DNA from: Acidobacteria bacterium 13_1_20CM_3_53_8
GTDB taxonomy: Bacteria; Acidobacteriota; Blastocatellia; Pyrinomonadales; Pyrinomonadaceae
Assembly (NCBI GenBank): GCA_001920415.1
Contig: MNJR01000059.1
Coordinates: 19,042-83,041 of the forward strand
Direction of reading: 5' to 3'
Length of the DNA: 64,000 nucleotides
The notes beneath the pieces are model-generated. The model was not told where the DNA came from, searched no databases, and saw nothing but the letters and a program-made list of their open reading frames with translations. The stretch's first letter is position 1, and each line of letters starts with the position of its first letter. Made by a program: the position numbers and the translations under genes. Below, one piece after another: positions 17,169 through 28,510 of this stretch.

Positions 17169-17774
17169 TTAGCTATTCGACTTGAGAATGTCCCATTGAA
17201 CATTCTCGTCTTCGTCCAGAGTTCCTACAAGAGTACAACGTAGCGGTGGCACTGCGCGCGGGCGTTGCTGGCGTGATAGTTGAGTAAAAAGGATCATGGG
17301 ATCGTAATTGAAATTGACAGTTTGCGACCGCGCCGCTTCTTCATGCTGGCATGGACGCTGAAGCTCTAGAGCAGCGCGTTCGTAAGAGACAATCTCATAC
17401 AAATATTTGACGCGCAGGCCAGACGCAAGGCGCTTTAGCAGATGGTCGCAGAAGTCTATTGCCTCTTGAAGAAAATAGTGGCTGACGGGTGGATTCACAG
17501 ACCAGAAGGCGCTCGCCTCTCTTATCATGCGCTTACGGCCCAAGAGAAAGCGCGTGAGCGGGAGCATTATGTAAAGCTTGCTCAAGCGAAAGTCTTTATG
17601 CACTAAGCGAGTAGCCTCCATGCCTCTGTCGGAAGCAACCTGAAGCAAGCGTTCCTGCTCAAGAGGCGTCAAATCATCTGCAAGCGACTGTAGACCATGC
17701 TCGCGTACGTGCGCGCGAAACTCCGTGTCAACGACCATTCGCGCGATTATTGTTTGAAAGCTGCGCTGGCTCAT
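17169..17774 (-). CDS. Partner protein of the DUF692 enzyme (candidate RiPP recognition/accessory protein)
   Basis: A 201-residue protein, start ATG overlapping the DUF692 stop as ATGA, so translation is coupled. The N-terminal 70 residues are helical (FQTIIARMVVDTEFRAHVRE, DDLTPLEQERLLQVASDRGME), followed by PLTRFLLGRKRM and a mid-region VSHYFLQEAIDFCDHLL. This gene position and size are those of the DUF2063/MbnC-like partners that present the peptide substrate to DUF692-family enzymes. I cannot confirm family membership from sequence alone. No signal peptide, so it is cytosolic. The stop codon abuts the nested palindrome. Confidence 0.65.
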   Translation of the reverse strand: MSQRSFQTIIARMVVDTEFRAHVREHGLQSLADDLTPLEQERLLQVASDRGMEATRLVHKDFRLSKLYIMLPLTRFLLGRKRMIREASAFWSVNPPVSHYFLQEAIDFCDHLLKRLASGLRVKYLYEIVSYERAALELQRPCQHEEAARSQTVNFNYDPMILFTQLSRQQRPRAVPPLRCTLVGTLDEDENVQWDILKSNS

Positions 17775-18688
17775 ACGGTCGCCTCAAAGGGTTGCGGCGC
17801 TGGCTGGTGGCGCATCCACATCTCTTTCATGCGCGCAAGCTGCGCGGTCAACCCGTCTTCGCCAACATCAACCAGCCAGGAGCCTATCATCTCAAACGTG
17901 ACGCCTCCCAGATTCGGAACTCGCGGCAACACCCAATCCAGAAGCTCCCAAACTTTCTGTGGACTCACGCCCGAATGCGCGTCGAAATAGAAACCTTGCG
18001 CCTCCATTCCTCCGGCGACGTGAATCTCCAGAACGTTTTCAAGGTTTAGCTTTTCAAGGAAGCGGTAAGGGTCGTCACGGTGGTTGCGACAGTTGGTGTA
18101 GAGATTATGAAGGTCTAGCAGAAGACGACAGCCGCTCTGTTCACATAATTGATTGAGAAAAGCGGCCTCATCGAAATCTTGTTGAGAATACTTGAAGAAG
18201 TAAACGTTGTTCTCAAGCAGAAAGGGAATAGGAACGCTGGAGCGCATTTCGCGCACGCGCGGCATCAAAAGGTCTAGAGACTCTTGATCGTATGGCAGCG
18301 GCATGGTCACGCCTACGTTCAACTCGGACGTGGCGTGTTCGGTGAACATGAAGGCCAGATGGTCGCTGTGCCAGGGGAACTTGAGCCATTCATACCAGCG
18401 AGCTATCTGCGCTATGTGTTCGCGGTCGAAGCGGTGTGCGCTGCCTATGGAGAAACCTATGCTGTGAAGAATGACAGGCATCTCCCTGTGCAGTTGTCGT
18501 AGCAGACTAATCCCTCGCCTGTTCTCAATGAAGCGCGGACTGCTGCCATAGCCCATGTCCGTCCACATGATGTCTGGGATTAGCTCAAGAAAATCGAAGT
18601 GCTGCTGTTCGCGCTCGATAAAGGGGCGCAATTGTTCTTGATAGAGCAGGCCTATGCCGAGTTTGGGAACTGACGATTGCTGGTGCAT
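17771..18688 (-). CDS. DUF692-family (MNIO) multinuclear iron-dependent oxidative enzyme
   Basis: A 305-residue TIM-barrel protein of the DUF692 family (MbnB, TglH relatives). Family features visible are the N-terminal LGIGLLYQEQLRPFI, FDFLELIPDIMW, HSIGFSIGSAHRFD (H75), PWHSDHLAF (H107, D109, H110), LLENNVYFF, LLLDLHNLYTN, EIHVAGG and the late VTFEMIGSW. The His/Asp/Glu residues are those expected to hold two or three iron ions. Known members oxidatively modify cysteines or nearby residues of ribosomal peptides. Its gene lies between a Cys-x-x-Cys peptide gene and the partner protein, on one strand, which fits a RiPP pathway. The start ATG at 18688 directly begins the homology. Confidence 0.88.
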   Translation of the reverse strand: MHQQSSVPKLGIGLLYQEQLRPFIEREQQHFDFLELIPDIMWTDMGYGSSPRFIENRRGISLLRQLHREMPVILHSIGFSIGSAHRFDREHIAQIARWYEWLKFPWHSDHLAFMFTEHATSELNVGVTMPLPYDQESLDLLMPRVREMRSSVPIPFLLENNVYFFKYSQQDFDEAAFLNQLCEQSGCRLLLDLHNLYTNCRNHRDDPYRFLEKLNLENVLEIHVAGGMEAQGFYFDAHSGVSPQKVWELLDWVLPRVPNLGGVTFEMIGSWLVDVGEDGLTAQLARMKEMWMRHQPAPQPFEATV

Positions 18689-18727
18689 TGCCGAATATTC
18701 TGTCGGGAACGTGAGCGACGCTTATGA

Positions 18728-18769
18728 CTCACAAGGAACGAGCAGATCGAACGGCTCGTTCCTTGTGAG
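18728..18769 (-). promoter_or_regulatory. Strong hairpin between precursor and enzyme genes
   Basis: CTCACAAGGAACGAGC (18728-18743) and GCTCGTTCCTTGTGAG (18754-18769) form a perfect 16-base-pair stem with a ten-base loop in the 155-base gap between peptide and DUF692 genes. No T-run follows on the minus strand. It may be a partial terminator or an RNA-stability element giving more precursor than enzyme, as is frequent in RiPP operons. Confidence 0.7.
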
Positions 18770-18843
18770 AAACCAGAGAGCATCAGAGTTAAATTGATGC
18801 GCGAGGGCAGCCCCTGTGCTTATAGCGCAAGGCGTGGCCTCAG

Positions 18844-19182
18844 TTATCCGCCGCCTCCTGCGGATATATCCTGAAGGGTGATCTTTTCAAAGCCGGATTT
18901 GCAACCGGGGCATCCCGCATTTCTGAATGCCAGCTTCGTCGCAGCGACGATGTCGTTGATACCGGCATTACGAGGCACAGCTACTCTTAGCTCTTTTCTT
19001 GATCCTGCGATAGCTCCCACAGAACCCGCGATTCCGCCCACAGTGCTGGCAATCGAGCCTAGGTCACTGAGGAATCCGCGCGTCTGCCCGCCTTTTTTGG
19101 CCGCGCCCTTTTTGGCTCCGCCCTTTTTAGACGCCCCTTTTTTAGCTGCGCCCTTTTTGCTTCCTCTCTTAGTTGCTGCCAT
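18844..19182 (-). CDS. Lys-rich peptide with C-terminal CPGC motif, candidate RiPP precursor
   Basis: A 112-residue peptide. The start at 19182 has AAAGGAGAAC eight bases upstream and beats the in-frame upstream ATG at 19248. Residues 5-36 are repeats of KKGA/KKGG, strongly basic. Residues 38-62 are Gly/Ala/Ser-rich (SIASTVGGIAGSVGAIAGS). Residues 64-86 are a more ordinary, helical stretch. The end is AGCPGCKSGF (C91, C94), then ITLQDISAGGGG. The gene is first in a three-gene run with a DUF692 enzyme, which in known systems acts on cysteines, so C91/C94 are the likely targets. It matches no precursor class I recognise. It could instead be a small DNA- or polyphosphate-binding protein. Confidence 0.7.
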   Translation of the reverse strand: MAATKRGSKKGAAKKGASKKGGAKKGAAKKGGQTRGFLSDLGSIASTVGGIAGSVGAIAGSRKELRVAVPRNAGINDIVAATKLAFRNAGCPGCKSGFEKITLQDISAGGGG

Positions 19183-19346
19183 AAAATGTTCTCCTTTTCT
19201 GTAGTTGGCATGTTTGGTTGTTGCGCAAGGTTTACGAGTCATCTTCACAAGCAGATTAGCCGGGGCTTCTCAGAGCGGTTCAGGAAAAGCGAGCATGAGT
19301 GAAGCCTCGATTAACTAGAAGCATGAGGTACAGATAGAACGAGAGC

Positions 19347-19476: not shown

Positions 19477-19507
19477 AGAAAGAGCATCCATCGCGGATGC
19501 TCTTTCT
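19477..19507 (-). terminator. Terminator hairpin after tRNA-Lys
   Basis: AGAAAGAGCATCC (19477-19489) pairs exactly with GGATGCTCTTTCT (19495-19507) around a five-base loop, 16 bases downstream of the tRNA 3' end on the minus strand. The following bases are only moderately T-rich. Confidence 0.7.
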
Positions 19508-19560
19508 TATTGATTTAATTGATGGGCCGTGCAAGACTCGAACTTGCGACCCGCTGATTA

Positions 19561-19865
19561 CTTACCACCTCGACTTTCGCCGCCCCAAATAAGTCAAAAG
19601 GTAAAAAGGTAAAAGGCAAAAGAAAAACTGCTTGATATTCATCCTTTTTGCCTTTTTACTTCTACCTTTTGCCTTCCTTTTGGGTTCGTGGTCTGGACTA
19701 TCCCTTCACCATATCTCTCACGAGATTTAGGTGGGCATCGTCTAGTCTCTACACCTTCCCTGTTATCGCAGGGCTTGGCTCGGGATCGCCATCGCACGCA
19801 GGCGGAAGGGTTCCCCGACTTTGACGCCTTTTCGCTCACCCGTTTCCAGGCAAGGCTCCCATTTG
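19561..19865 (-). ncRNA. Group I (IC3-like) self-splicing intron in tRNA-Lys
   Basis: A 305-nt intron. The 5' exon ends in U and the intron ends in G, as required. The guide GGAG a few bases inside the intron pairs with exon CUCU, with the conserved G-U at the splice site (P1). Core elements typical of bacterial tRNA introns are present: GAGCCAAGCC (Q/P region), GGUGUAGAGACUAGACG (R, 19739-19755) and GGGAUAGUCC (S, 19695-19704), whose GACUA/UAGUC blocks form P7. No homing endonuclease is encoded. Removing an inserted repeat (19587-19682) leaves about 210 nt, close to the small tRNA introns of Azoarcus and cyanobacteria. Confidence 0.9.
19587..19682. repeat. GGCAAAAGGTAAAAG palindrome inserted in the tRNA intron
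   Basis: The same purine-word palindrome found in intergenic gaps elsewhere lies near the 3' end of the group I intron, beyond P7, where it would simply extend a peripheral (P9-type) stem. Left arm 19592-19622, right arm 19643-19678. Confidence 0.88.
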
Positions 19866-19910
19866 AGAGTCAGCTGCTCTACCAACTGAGCTAACGGCCC
19901 GTGATTAGAA

Positions 19911-19938
19911 ATTATCTTGTTGCGATGATTAGTGTCAA
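19911..19938 (-). promoter_or_regulatory. Promoter of the tRNA-Lys gene
   Basis: Minus-strand TTGACA (19933-19938), a 16-base spacer, and GATAAT (19911-19916) end 11 bases before the tRNA 5' end. This is a near-consensus sigma-70 promoter in the right place for a tRNA. Confidence 0.7.
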
Positions 19939-19983: not shown

Positions 19984-21294
19984 TTACTGGTATTGCGCAA
20001 GAGCGTTGCGCATGTCGGCGGCTGTAGCCCAGCGTTGCGCGGGGTCTTTTGCCAGCGCTCTCTCTACGACTTCGGCTATGCGCGGCGGAACATCCGGCGT
20101 GCGGTGGCGCAAAGGGACTATGGGCTTGTCGAAGATGGCTTTGATGGTTTCGGTTACGTCAGCGCGTGGGCCAATGTCTAATGCGAGTTGTCCTGAAATT
20201 AAACTGTATGCGGTCATGCCCATAGCGTAGATGTCGGATGAGGGGCGCACGTCCCGAAAATTTCTCAACTGTTCGGGCGGCATATAGACGATTGTGCCCG
20301 CCACGTCTCCGGCCATAGAGATGCCGCTCATGCCGGATTGCTTGAAGCTTTTCGCCAATCCGAAATCCGTGAGCTTAGCATTGTAGTTAGGCCATTGGCC
20401 GCTCACCAGTATGTTCTGATCTTTGATGTCGCGGTGAATGTAACCTTGCGTGTGAGCGTAAGCCAGAGCGTCAAGTGTCTGAGTCAGTATGGGCAGCGCT
20501 TCTTCGTAAGGTAGATGCCCGCCGCGCGCTTCTGCCAGCTTCGCAGCATCAACTCCTTCGACGAACTCTGTAATCAGATAGACGATGCCCTGATGCTGGC
20601 CGCGATCAAGGAACTTTACAATGTGCGGGTGCTGAAGGGTTGCGGCAACGTCAATCTCTCGCATGAAGCGACGAAGAGCCTGATCGCTGACGGCCACCTC
20701 CGGCAACAGAGTTTTGATTGCTACGGGGCGTCCAGTCTTTTGATCTCGCGCCAGCATCACGCAGCCCATCCCGCCTTTTCCAAGAACCTTCACCATATCG
20801 TAGCCGGGAACGGGCTGAGGCTCTTGCTTCAACTCATTGCGACAGTCTTCGCAGAGATAGATCATCTTCTCGTCCGGCGCAGAGGCTTCGGCCTGGCTGG
20901 GCCGCCCGCAACGCTGGCAGTGGACTGTGATGATTGAAGGCTGTGTGTCCAGCAGCGACGGGCGCTGCTCTTGCTGAACTGCTTGAGACTGTGGGTCAGC
21001 AGTAACTTCGACGGCCAGAACTGTCTGGCCGCCCTGAATGCGGTCGCCGTTCTGTAGAAAAATTTCCGAGACGCGGCGACCGTTAACGTAAGTGCCGTTG
21101 GTAGAGCCAAGGTCGCGCAGGAAGCAACGAGGCGGCGCGATCTCTATCAGACAGTGGTTGCGCGAGAAGAATCGGTCGTCGGGCAGATAGAGCTGCGCTG
21201 CGTTGCTGCGGCCTATCAGAAAAGTATCGTGGCGGTCGAACGTGAAGGTATGCCCCACGTGAGGCCCCGACAGCACACGTAAATTGACTCGCAT
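19984..21294 (-). CDS. FHA-domain Ser/Thr protein kinase
   Basis: A 436-residue cytosolic kinase. Residues about 20-85 are an FHA phosphothreonine-binding domain (LIGRSNAAQLYLPDD, SRNH, LGSTNGTYVNGR). A four-cysteine zinc ribbon (CQRCG ... CEDC) follows at about 125-155. The kinase domain from about 165 has the P-loop LGKGGMGCVMLA, VAIK lysine, HRDIKDQN catalytic loop and DFGLAK, plus the MPPEQL activation-segment end. No membrane segment. It likely phosphorylates its own FHA partners. The kinase at 22609-24270 and the zinc-ribbon protein at 21397 are encoded next to it in the same direction, suggesting a shared signalling module. Confidence 0.92.
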   Translation of the reverse strand: MRVNLRVLSGPHVGHTFTFDRHDTFLIGRSNAAQLYLPDDRFFSRNHCLIEIAPPRCFLRDLGSTNGTYVNGRRVSEIFLQNGDRIQGGQTVLAVEVTADPQSQAVQQEQRPSLLDTQPSIITVHCQRCGRPSQAEASAPDEKMIYLCEDCRNELKQEPQPVPGYDMVKVLGKGGMGCVMLARDQKTGRPVAIKTLLPEVAVSDQALRRFMREIDVAATLQHPHIVKFLDRGQHQGIVYLITEFVEGVDAAKLAEARGGHLPYEEALPILTQTLDALAYAHTQGYIHRDIKDQNILVSGQWPNYNAKLTDFGLAKSFKQSGMSGISMAGDVAGTIVYMPPEQLRNFRDVRPSSDIYAMGMTAYSLISGQLALDIGPRADVTETIKAIFDKPIVPLRHRTPDVPPRIAEVVERALAKDPAQRWATAADMRNALAQYQ

Positions 21295-25918: not shown

Positions 25919-28141
25919 CTACTTCTTCGTCGTCGCCGAAGCAGTGCTGGAGTAAGCTGAGTTTCCGCTAACACTGTAAGCGCGAACACGATAGTAATAC
26001 TTCTTAGCGGCCAGCAGACCAGTGCTGGAATAGGTCTTCACGCCAGCGCCGACCGTGCCGACCTGTGCGAAGCTAATTCCGTCGGTCGAGCGTTCGATTG
26101 AAAAGCCGGTCTCGTTCGTGGAGTTGTCCGACCAGGAGAGATTTATCTGGCTGTTAGAGTATGCTGTTGCGCTCAGATTGCCGGGCGCACTCGGCAGGTC
26201 AGAGACGATCTTCATGACAGAGCCTGAATCGCCACTGGTAAGCGCTTTCTTCGATTGAGTGAGCATGTCGCCTAACAAAACTCCATCGCCTAAGAGAACG
26301 CCATCGCCTAATAGAACGCCGTCGCCCAGAAGGACTCCATCGCCTAATAGGACTCCATCACCCAGAAGCACGCCGTTTGCGCAGAAGGTTGTGCCTTCGT
26401 TAATACTGATGCCCATAGTGGACGGGTCTGTGTCGGCGTAGATAAGAATGTTATCGCCAAGCAGCACGCCGTCGCCCAGTAGGACTCCGTCGCCCAACAG
26501 AACGCCGTTGCTCTCTATAGTTCCATCGCCGAGCAGCACGCCCTGGCTGTAAACTTTCTGGTAGTTCGTAATCAGGTTTGTTCCATAGCCGTATGTCTGA
26601 TCGAAAATAACTCCCTGACTCCACGCGAAGCTGAACCCGCTGATACTCGTCTGCGCCGTAGGCACTGAGCAGGTCGAGCAGAGCATGGGAGCGTTCAGCG
26701 GCGTGCTTGAATTCAAATCCGTGCGAATAGCTTTTGCGAGTCGTATAGCGCCTTCGATGTTTATTTCGCCAGCGCCCTGCTCCAATTGATTGAATCCTGC
26801 GAGCGGCTGAGCCGTGTACATCAGAATCATCTTCACCATGTTCGGCGTCAGACTGGGATTGGCTTGAAGCACTAAAGCGGCTGCGCCGGAAACCACCGGC
26901 GTCGCCATAGAAGTTCCGCTCAAGTACATCATCTCGCGTGCGCTGCTTCCGCTCACACCAGCGTCGAGCGCCGGGTTCTGAGTCACTATATAATTATTTA
27001 CAGCTTCGGCGCTGAGGAGCTTGTTGCCCGGAGCTGCGACATCGGGTTTGATTACATTATCGTAATGCTTAACGCCTGTATCGTCCGTCCAGAAGCCACG
27101 CGTTGGCCCACGCGAGCTATATGTAGTGATGCCGTCATCGGCACGAGAGTCCGTACCGAATGAATTGGCAGCGCCGACTGTGATGACGGAAGGCTCTATG
27201 CCGGGCGAGTGAATCTGGCCGTAAACTTTCTGGCCTGAGCCGTTCTTGCCCTCGTTGCCCGCAGCCGCGACGACTACTACGCCAGCGTCAACTAGGCGAC
27301 GAGCGGCCATGCAGAGCACGTCCGTTTTGTAAGAATCAATGGCAGCCGTTCCCAAACTCATGTTGACGACGCGTATGTTGTAGGTCGTACGGTAGGTCAT
27401 TACCCAATCAAGCGCGTTTAGAAGGCTTGCTGTGTTGCCCTTTCCGTTGGAATCCAGAACGCGAAGATTGTAGACGTTTGCTCCGCTGGCTATGCCTTCA
27501 TAAGCGCCGCTGGAAATGTTGTTGCTGCCAGCGGCAAGGCCAGCCACGTGCGTGCCGTGTCCGTAAGGATCATCAGTCCTGCCTTCGCCCGTAAAATCAA
27601 CGCTCATCTGTAGGTGAGCGTTAACAGCCGTGTGATTGGAATCAATGCCGGAATCTAGAACTGCTATGCCTATGCCGCTGCCGTCGAGCGTCGTGCCGGG
27701 AACCATCGAACGAGCGGCGTCCGCGCCCGTCGTCAATGAAACGTGGCCCAGGAGTTTGAGGTCTCTATTCATTGAGACATACCCAACGTCACTACGAGCC
27801 GCGAGCGTATCAACGGCAGATGTAGGAAGGTCTACTACGCGAGCGCCAAAATTTTTGAAGGAGCGTTTGACGGATCCGCCATTGCTACTGATTGCTAAAT
27901 CCAGATTTTGGCTCCAAGAGCTGGAAGGTTGAATGAGTACGCTGACGTGAGTGCCGAGCAGCGCGTCTAACACCTTCTGCTTCAGGTCTTGAGAAACTTT
28001 CTGTTTCTTCGAGGAGCCTGACGTGCTGGAGGAGGTTGATCCGCTTGCGAGGCTTGCAACGGGAGCGCCCGCGAGGAGAGCCAGCGCGAGAAGCAGTGCG
28101 GTGAATCTGGTTAGATGTTTGTGTGCGGTAGCCAATTTCAT
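25919..28141 (-). CDS. Exported subtilisin-like (S8) protease with GVLLGD repeats
   Basis: A 740-residue protein with a signal peptide (about 1-33) and a Ser-rich propeptide region. The S8 triad is D163 (VLDSGID), H198 (GHGTHVAG) and S411 (SGTSMATP), with the oxyanion Asn in AAAGNEG. Between about 535 and 630, a run of GVLLGD hexapeptides (three to six in a row, in two blocks) separates the protease from a fibronectin type III domain (about 655-740). The repeats could form a beta-roll or solenoid spacer. It is most likely secreted or surface-bound. Confidence 0.93.
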   Translation of the reverse strand: MKLATAHKHLTRFTALLLALALLAGAPVASLASGSTSSSTSGSSKKQKVSQDLKQKVLDALLGTHVSVLIQPSSSWSQNLDLAISSNGGSVKRSFKNFGARVVDLPTSAVDTLAARSDVGYVSMNRDLKLLGHVSLTTGADAARSMVPGTTLDGSGIGIAVLDSGIDSNHTAVNAHLQMSVDFTGEGRTDDPYGHGTHVAGLAAGSNNISSGAYEGIASGANVYNLRVLDSNGKGNTASLLNALDWVMTYRTTYNIRVVNMSLGTAAIDSYKTDVLCMAARRLVDAGVVVVAAAGNEGKNGSGQKVYGQIHSPGIEPSVITVGAANSFGTDSRADDGITTYSSRGPTRGFWTDDTGVKHYDNVIKPDVAAPGNKLLSAEAVNNYIVTQNPALDAGVSGSSAREMMYLSGTSMATPVVSGAAALVLQANPSLTPNMVKMILMYTAQPLAGFNQLEQGAGEINIEGAIRLAKAIRTDLNSSTPLNAPMLCSTCSVPTAQTSISGFSFAWSQGVIFDQTYGYGTNLITNYQKVYSQGVLLGDGTIESNGVLLGDGVLLGDGVLLGDNILIYADTDPSTMGISINEGTTFCANGVLLGDGVLLGDGVLLGDGVLLGDGVLLGDGVLLGDMLTQSKKALTSGDSGSVMKIVSDLPSAPGNLSATAYSNSQINLSWSDNSTNETGFSIERSTDGISFAQVGTVGAGVKTYSSTGLLAAKKYYYRVRAYSVSGNSAYSSTASATTKK

Positions 28142-28387: not shown

Positions 28388-28510
28388 TGACCGCCGTTGG
28401 AAGTCAAAGGAAGGCAAAAGGTAAAAGTAAAAAGGCAAAAGTGAAGAAGGTCGAATCTCTTCCTAACTTTTGCCTTTTACCTTTTTACTTTTGACTTCCA
28501 ACGGCGGTCA
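28388..28510. repeat. Nested palindrome at the 3' end of the TPR gene
   Basis: Outer arms TGACCGCCGTTGGAAGTCAA and its complement enclose a GGCAAAAGGTAAAAG-type palindrome. The right arm supplies the stop codon of the TPR lipoprotein gene (28508-28510). The remaining part of the gap (28142-28387) contains the presumed subtilase promoter region; a small TGACAG...CTGTCA palindrome is at 28335-28353. Confidence 0.85.

What the first reader, a model, noticed from the sequence alone, without database searches (positions are those of the whole stretch)
19523..19900. Group I intron splitting the anticodon of tRNA-Lys(CUU)
Directly seen: joined halves give a perfect 73-nt tRNA-Lys, while the inner 305 nt begin after a U, end in G, carry a P1 guide (GGAG to CUCU with G-U) and P7 blocks GACUA/UAGUC. 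Known bacterial tRNA introns are best described in tRNA-Leu(UAA), tRNA-Arg(CCU), tRNA-Ile(CAU) and tRNA-fMet. I do not recall a lysine CUU case, so the host tRNA may be new or little described.
Basis: partly seen in the sequence, partly recalled or inferred. Interest (0 to 1): 0.85.

Follow-up and report, generated by a model that had tools for sequence, protein, structure and literature searches.

The report
Self-splicing intron in lysine tRNA gene
A lysine tRNA gene of an uncultured soil-type bacterium is cut in the middle of its anticodon by a self-splicing RNA intron; the same site is interrupted in dozens of bacteria from four phylum-level groups, although the papers I could search name only four other tRNA genes as hosts.

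Summary
Window 19900-19523 (minus) is tRNA-Lys(CUU) split after U35 by a 305-nt group I intron. The joined exons fold as a 73-nt tRNA-Lys(CUU). Rfam RF00028 scores 45.3 bits (E 2.4e-10), just under its cut-off of 50. Twelve homologous introns support P1-P9 and the P3/P7 pseudoknot by covariation: 98% of cells paired, 27 pairs with double changes, 0/500 shuffles. A sigma-70-like promoter and a terminator frame the gene, and a sister genome has the intact gene next to the same kinase. Of 60 family genomes, 9 have this split gene and none of those has a standard intact copy; 38 have an intact one. It is not a decayed relic by sequence: 1 of 91 otherwise invariant core positions differs, and that change strengthens a pair. 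A divergent intact Lys(CUU) does lie in a tRNA array elsewhere in the assembly, so this gene need not be essential. The site is recurrent: 45 further genomes (Acidobacteriota, Alphaproteobacteria, Methylococcales, Bacillota/Mycoplasmatota) carry a Lys(CUU) intron after U35, in at least three intron lineages. The family is an intron hotspot (Asn, Lys, Leu, Arg-UCU, CAU tRNAs). Splicing itself is inferred, not observed.

The parts
19866..19900 (-). 5' exon of tRNA-Lys(CUU), positions 1-35, ends in anticodon C34 U35
   Evidence: joined gene folds as tRNA-Lys(ctt)
19561..19865 (-). group I intron, 305 nt, no ORF of 70 aa or more
   Evidence: RF00028 45.3 bits E 2.4e-10; covariation; ORFs
19523..19560 (-). 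3' exon of tRNA-Lys(CUU), begins with anticodon U36; CCA not encoded
19856..19859 (-). internal guide sequence GGAG, pairs with exon CUCU (19869-19866) to form P1 with U-G at the splice site
   Evidence: invariant in all 12 homologues
19823..19828 (-). P3 5' strand GGCGUC, pairs with 19739-19734 GAUGCC
   Evidence: 3 pairs with double changes, 100% paired
19814..19818 (-). P4 5' strand UCGGG, pairs with 19784-19780 CCCGA
   Evidence: invariant
19743..19747 (-). P7 5' strand GACUA, pairs with 19700-19696 UAGUC; guanosine-binding helix by homology
   Evidence: 2 of 5 pairs with double changes
19565..19568 (-). P9 3' strand GUGG, pairs with 19691-19688 CCAC; closes the loop that holds the repeat
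19591..19681 (-). copy of an AT-rich imperfect palindromic dispersed repeat inserted in the P9 loop, absent from the 11 other homologues
   Evidence: 76 BLAST matches in the genome; inverted repeat; alignment gap
19911..19938 (-). sigma-70-like promoter TTGACA-16-GATAAT, 10 bp upstream of the tRNA
   Evidence: 11 of 12 match; shuffles mean 0.3
19477..19507 (-). intrinsic-terminator-like hairpin just after the tRNA
   Evidence: consensus match only

Best explanation
[quoted passage not shown] The precursor is transcribed from its own promoter. The intron guide GGAG pairs with exon CUCU to make P1 with a U-G pair; guanosine bound in P7 would cut after U35; the freed U35 would then attack after the terminal G and join C34-U35 to U36, restoring the CUU anticodon. 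Anatomy and conservation are shown; the two splicing steps are inferred from the family. The intron is a stable allele at an otherwise intact locus, without its own endonuclease, and tolerates a dispersed repeat in its P9 loop.
For: RF00028 hit. All 58 modelled pairs are standard in the window copy; in the alignment 98.1% of cells pair, 27 pairs have double changes, 0/500 shuffles equal it, slid controls pair 35-45%. Joined exons give tRNA-Lys(CUU). All resolved related introns leave a 5' exon ending in U and end in G, with 7/7 acceptor pairs for the 45 Lys genes found elsewhere. Intact allele at the same locus beside a 71.5% identical FHA-kinase orthologue in a sister genome. Split and standard intact Lys(CUU) never co-occur in 60 genomes (9 vs 38, hypergeometric 3e-5). 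One deviation in 91 conserved columns, strengthening P3 from U-G to U-A. Promoter and terminator in place.
Against: The score is below the Rfam gathering cut-off. No transcript evidence is available. The minimum-free-energy fold alone does not show the core, as expected for a pseudoknotted ribozyme carrying a strong insert hairpin. A divergent intact Lys(CUU) on contig C9 and intact Lys(UUU) genes, which can read AAG by wobble (established knowledge), mean splicing failure might be tolerated.
Confidence: 0.93

Rival explanations
1. A decayed or splicing-dead relic: the array copy of tRNA-Lys(CUU) and tRNA-Lys(UUU) cover AAG codons, and the repeat insertion has inactivated the intron.
For: Intact Lys(CUU) in a 17-tRNA array on C9 with encoded CCA; Lys(UUU) genes present; 91-nt repeat in the P9 loop.
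Against: All 58 core pairs intact and 1/91 conserved positions changed; exons without defects and promoter present; P9 pairing on both sides of the repeat preserved. The array copy is divergent and may belong to a mobile island or to a contaminant (MAG contamination 3.9%).
Confidence: 0.06
2. Not a tRNA intron but a recombination junction or assembly error that separated two tRNA halves.
For: Mobile elements do split tRNA genes in this family: in G007 a tRNA-Lys(UUU) is cut by a tyrosine-recombinase-like element (L241).
Against: The same split with homologous intron is found in independent genomes of several phyla, and the insert is a group I RNA.
Confidence: 0.01

Closest known systems
Group I introns of bacterial tRNA-Leu(UAA), tRNA-Ile(CAU), tRNA-Arg(CCU) and tRNA-fMet (IC3-type and others)
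   Same: Small, usually ORF-less ribozyme in the anticodon loop; P1-P9 core; U-G at the 5' splice site; terminal G.
   Different: Host is tRNA-Lys(CUU) and the site is between 35 and 36. The 2007 paper PMC1995217 counts four interrupted bacterial tRNA genes; which four is from my own knowledge. tRNAscan-SE 2.0 reports fMet and Ile2 only (PMC8450103).
Synechocystis tRNA-fMet intron with I-Ssp6803I
   Same: Another Lys(CUU) intron lineage (Acidobacteriota type 2 and Methylococcales) encodes a PD-(D/E)XK endonuclease of family PF11645 and matches PDB 2ost weakly (E 7.5e-4); I identify 2ost as I-Ssp6803I from memory.
   Different: The window intron belongs to a different lineage and has no endonuclease.
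'Group I intron' of Gloeocapsa PCC 73106 tRNA-Lys(CTT) (PMC5733544)
   Same: Same tRNA name.
   Different: Reported as 37-49 nt, too short for a group I ribozyme; placed at nucleotide 38, not inside the anticodon.

Membership tests
Group I intron (RF00028) | match to the covariance model | tested here: met
   45.3 bits, E 2.4e-10 over 601 bases; below the gathering score of 50
Group I intron (RF00028) | P3-P7 pseudoknot and P4-P6 domain supported by covariation | tested here: met
   P4 itself is invariant and so neutral
Group I intron (RF00028) | P1 with U-G pair at 5' splice site; last nucleotide G | tested here: met
Group I intron (RF00028) | guanosine-initiated self-splicing | not testable with these tools
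   needs in vitro transcript
IC3 subgroup | subgroup-specific core and peripheral elements | not tested
   no subgroup model was run; inference from small size, tRNA host and look of the core
Functional tRNA-Lys(CUU) | joined exons fold as canonical tRNA with CUU anticodon | tested here: met
Mobile (homing) group I intron | encoded homing endonuclease | tested here: not met
   longest intron ORF 68 aa; endonuclease ORFs occur in other Lys introns

The most novel reading that the evidence does not exclude
tRNA-Lys(CUU) position 35/36 is a recurrent, largely undescribed group I intron site across bacteria, invaded independently by at least three intron lineages, and Pyrinomonadaceae are a hotspot in which introns have spread to five tRNA species at positions 33, 34 and 35 by re-targeting of the guide sequence.
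Probability: 0.7. Interest if true: 0.65.

Novelty: new member of a known kind. Interest (0 to 1): 0.55.

Why it matters
It adds a lysine tRNA (and, from the relatives, asparagine and arginine-UCU tRNAs) to the short list of bacterial tRNA hosts of self-splicing introns, in Acidobacteriota where no paper found describes any. Standard tRNA finders and the default Rfam cut-off miss such genes, so genomes look as if they lack an essential tRNA: 14 of 60 family genomes show only a split standard tRNA-Asn gene. Many guide/exon combinations in close relatives make a natural data set for testing how tRNA introns change target. One cultured strain, Skermanella stibiiresistens SB22, carries the Lys intron and allows direct tests.

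Tried and rejected
Default Rfam scan: no intron hit, resolved by the E-value scan. miRNA families on the repeat hairpin: chance hits to an AT-rich palindrome. ARAGORN intron mode on the window locus gave Arg(ccg), a misplacement because it does not know group I splice rules. Genus search: only one genome held. L118 (intact tRNA-Lys followed by GGAGC) and L119 were false positives of the pattern scan; L132, L134, L139 and L144 end before the 3' half. RF00028 did not detect the Bacilli, Clostridia or Christensenella Lys introns tested (L108, L111, L116); their group I identity rests on homology or on P1/P7-like pairing seen by eye. MFE folding does not recover the core. Literature searches for Acidobacteria plus group I intron plus tRNA gave nothing; only open-licence papers could be searched.

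Full report
OBSERVATION. On the minus strand the window holds a 35-nt 5' tRNA half (19900-19866), 305 nt (19865-19561) and a 38-nt 3' half (19560-19523). Joined, the halves are 73 nt and ARAGORN calls tRNA-Lys(ctt) with complete stems. ARAGORN without introns does not see the gene.

GROUP I IDENTITY. The default Rfam scan misses the intron; the E-value scan finds RF00028 over its whole length at 45.3 bits, E 2.4e-10, just under the gathering score of 50. I aligned 12 homologous Lys introns from Acidobacteriota and Alphaproteobacteria and wrote out P1-P9 with the P3/P7 pseudoknot. 98.1% of 690 cells form standard pairs, 27 of 58 pairs have changes on both sides, no shuffle of 500 reaches this, and slid versions pair only 35-45%. 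Examples: P3 C-G/U-A/G-C, P5 C-G/G-C, P7 U-A/C-G and A-U/U-A, P9 A-U/G-C. One caution: I derived the structure from the window sequence, so percent paired leans towards it; the double changes in the other rows are the stronger evidence. All 58 pairs are intact in the window copy.

FUNCTIONAL OR RELIC. The window intron differs from the other 11 at 1 of 91 otherwise invariant columns, and that change makes a P3 U-G into U-A. A TTGACA-16-GATAAT promoter-like site ends 10 bp upstream of the tRNA and a terminator-like hairpin follows it (consensus matches only). A sister genome (G006, L170) has an uninterrupted tRNA-Lys(CUU) beside a kinase 71.5% identical to the window's FHA kinase (window 19984-21294), so the window gene is the same locus with an intron. 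Over 60 genomes of the family, 9 carry a split Lys(CUU) and none of these has a standard intact copy, while 38 others do (hypergeometric 3e-5; the one pattern hit in an intron genome, G014, is its split gene). The same holds for tRNA-Asn(GUU): 14 split, 37 intact, no overlap (5e-8). Because Asn has no other isoacceptor, the Asn introns must be spliced in those genomes unless a non-standard copy exists.

THE SECOND GENE. The host assembly does contain an intact, divergent tRNA-Lys(CUU) (GCCTCCATAGCTTAATTGG...CCA) in a 17-tRNA array on C9 (L035 1434-1510), and an array-type tRNA-Asn at the end of C53. The C9 array lies near SSB, XPB-like helicase, DUF790, CoiA-like and HNH genes, which looks like a mobile island; contamination of the MAG (3.9%) is not excluded. 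So the refutation criterion 'a second intact gene' is literally met, but the core conservation speaks against a relic. Whether the intron gene is essential is open.

DISPERSED REPEAT. The intron is about 90 nt longer than its relatives because a copy of an AT-rich imperfect palindrome lies in the P9 loop (19591-19681). This repeat has 76 BLAST matches in the genome (both strands of several palindromic copies are counted), one more copy being at window 28406-28497. P9 pairing on either side is kept.

RELATIVES. Family: contigs of the unnamed family genomes have the same lengths as named records (for example G014:C276 29,511 = JACDEG010000010, G037:C42 33,374 = JALHNX010000042, G007:C47 87,567 = JANDLT010000015, all 'Pyrinomonadaceae'), so I infer that the family is Pyrinomonadaceae, Acidobacteriota. 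The genus holds one genome. In 60 family genomes 35 have group I hits, 57 in all. I resolved 50 as anticodon-loop insertions: Asn(GUU) after U35 (14), CAU tRNA (Ile2 or elongator Met) after U33 (15), Lys(CUU) after U35 (9), Leu(UAA) after U34 (7), Arg(UCU) after U34 (5). In every case the 5' exon ends in U and the intron in G. The rest are rRNA introns by eye, with one incomplete CAU case. The host itself has four: Lys, Asn, CAU tRNA and 23S rRNA.

BEYOND THE FAMILY. A pattern of tRNA-Lys 5' exon plus guide found 51 stretches in the collection of 84,980 species genomes. Forty-five resolve into complete tRNA-Lys(CUU) genes split after U35, each with 7/7 acceptor pairs: 13 Acidobacteriota, 9 Alphaproteobacteria (including cultured Skermanella stibiiresistens SB22), 6 Methylococcales, 17 Bacilli/Mycoplasma/Clostridia/Christensenella. 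A maximum-likelihood tree (206 columns; deep nodes weak) puts them in three places: the window type with Alphaproteobacteria, Clostridia and Christensenella; a second acidobacterial type with Methylococcales, next to Arg(UCU) introns (support 98); and a Bacilli/Mycoplasma type on a long branch. The nesting of Methylococcales introns among acidobacterial type-2 introns with short branches suggests horizontal transfer. Several type-2 introns encode a PD-(D/E)XK endonuclease (PF11645) that weakly matches PDB 2ost, which I take from memory to be I-Ssp6803I. Rfam detects the Alphaproteobacteria, Methylococcales and type-2 examples named but not the Bacilli, Clostridia or Christensenella ones tested.

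KNOWN OR NEW. A 2007 paper states that group I introns interrupt four bacterial tRNA genes (PMC1995217); tRNAscan-SE 2.0 names fMet and Ile2 (PMC8450103); the 2014 review does not mention Acidobacteria (PMC3984707). A 2017 paper uses the words for a Gloeocapsa tRNA-Lys(CTT) insertion of 37-49 nt, which cannot be this ribozyme (PMC5733544). Subscription papers and GISSD/CRW tables were not searchable, so 'undescribed' is limited to the open library. The element is a new member of a known kind; what is unusual is the host, the recurrence of the site and the density in one family.

Noticed in passing
L001 1476-1812; L004 1335-1813; L002 1-450: Three more group I introns in the host genome: tRNA-Asn(GUU) after U35, a CAU tRNA after U33 (405 nt, with another palindrome inside), and 23S rRNA.
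   Followed up: partly
window 19591-19681 and 28406-28497: Dispersed AT-rich palindromic repeat of about 90 bp with 76 BLAST matches in the genome, one copy inside the Lys intron.
   Followed up: partly
window 17169-19248: Probable RiPP cluster: MbnB/TglH/ChrH-family enzyme (17771-18688), a 201-aa partner with no Pfam match, and a short Lys/Ala/Gly-rich peptide containing CPGC as candidate precursor.
   Followed up: no
L035 121-1978 (G000:C9:132420-134277): Array of 17 tRNA genes, several low scoring, with encoded CCA; possible mobile island near SSB, XPB-like helicase, DUF790 and HNH genes.
   Followed up: partly
L241 (G007:C104 near 2596-2636): tRNA-Lys(UUU) interrupted just after the anticodon loop by DNA encoding a tyrosine-recombinase-like protein; probably an integrated element at an att site.
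   Followed up: no
L001 about 1780-2640: The 3' end of tRNA-Asn is repeated about 820 bp downstream, flanking a small antitoxin-like ORF and a PIN-like ORF: a possible small island at the intron-bearing tRNA gene.
   Followed up: no
L070, L073, L087, L092 and others: Introns of about 640 nt in CAU tRNA genes carry a 122-aa HNH-looking ORF on the strand opposite to the tRNA (no Pfam match for the one tested).
   Followed up: partly
window 25919-28141: Subtilisin-like 740-aa protein with many tandem GVLLGD repeats.
   Followed up: no
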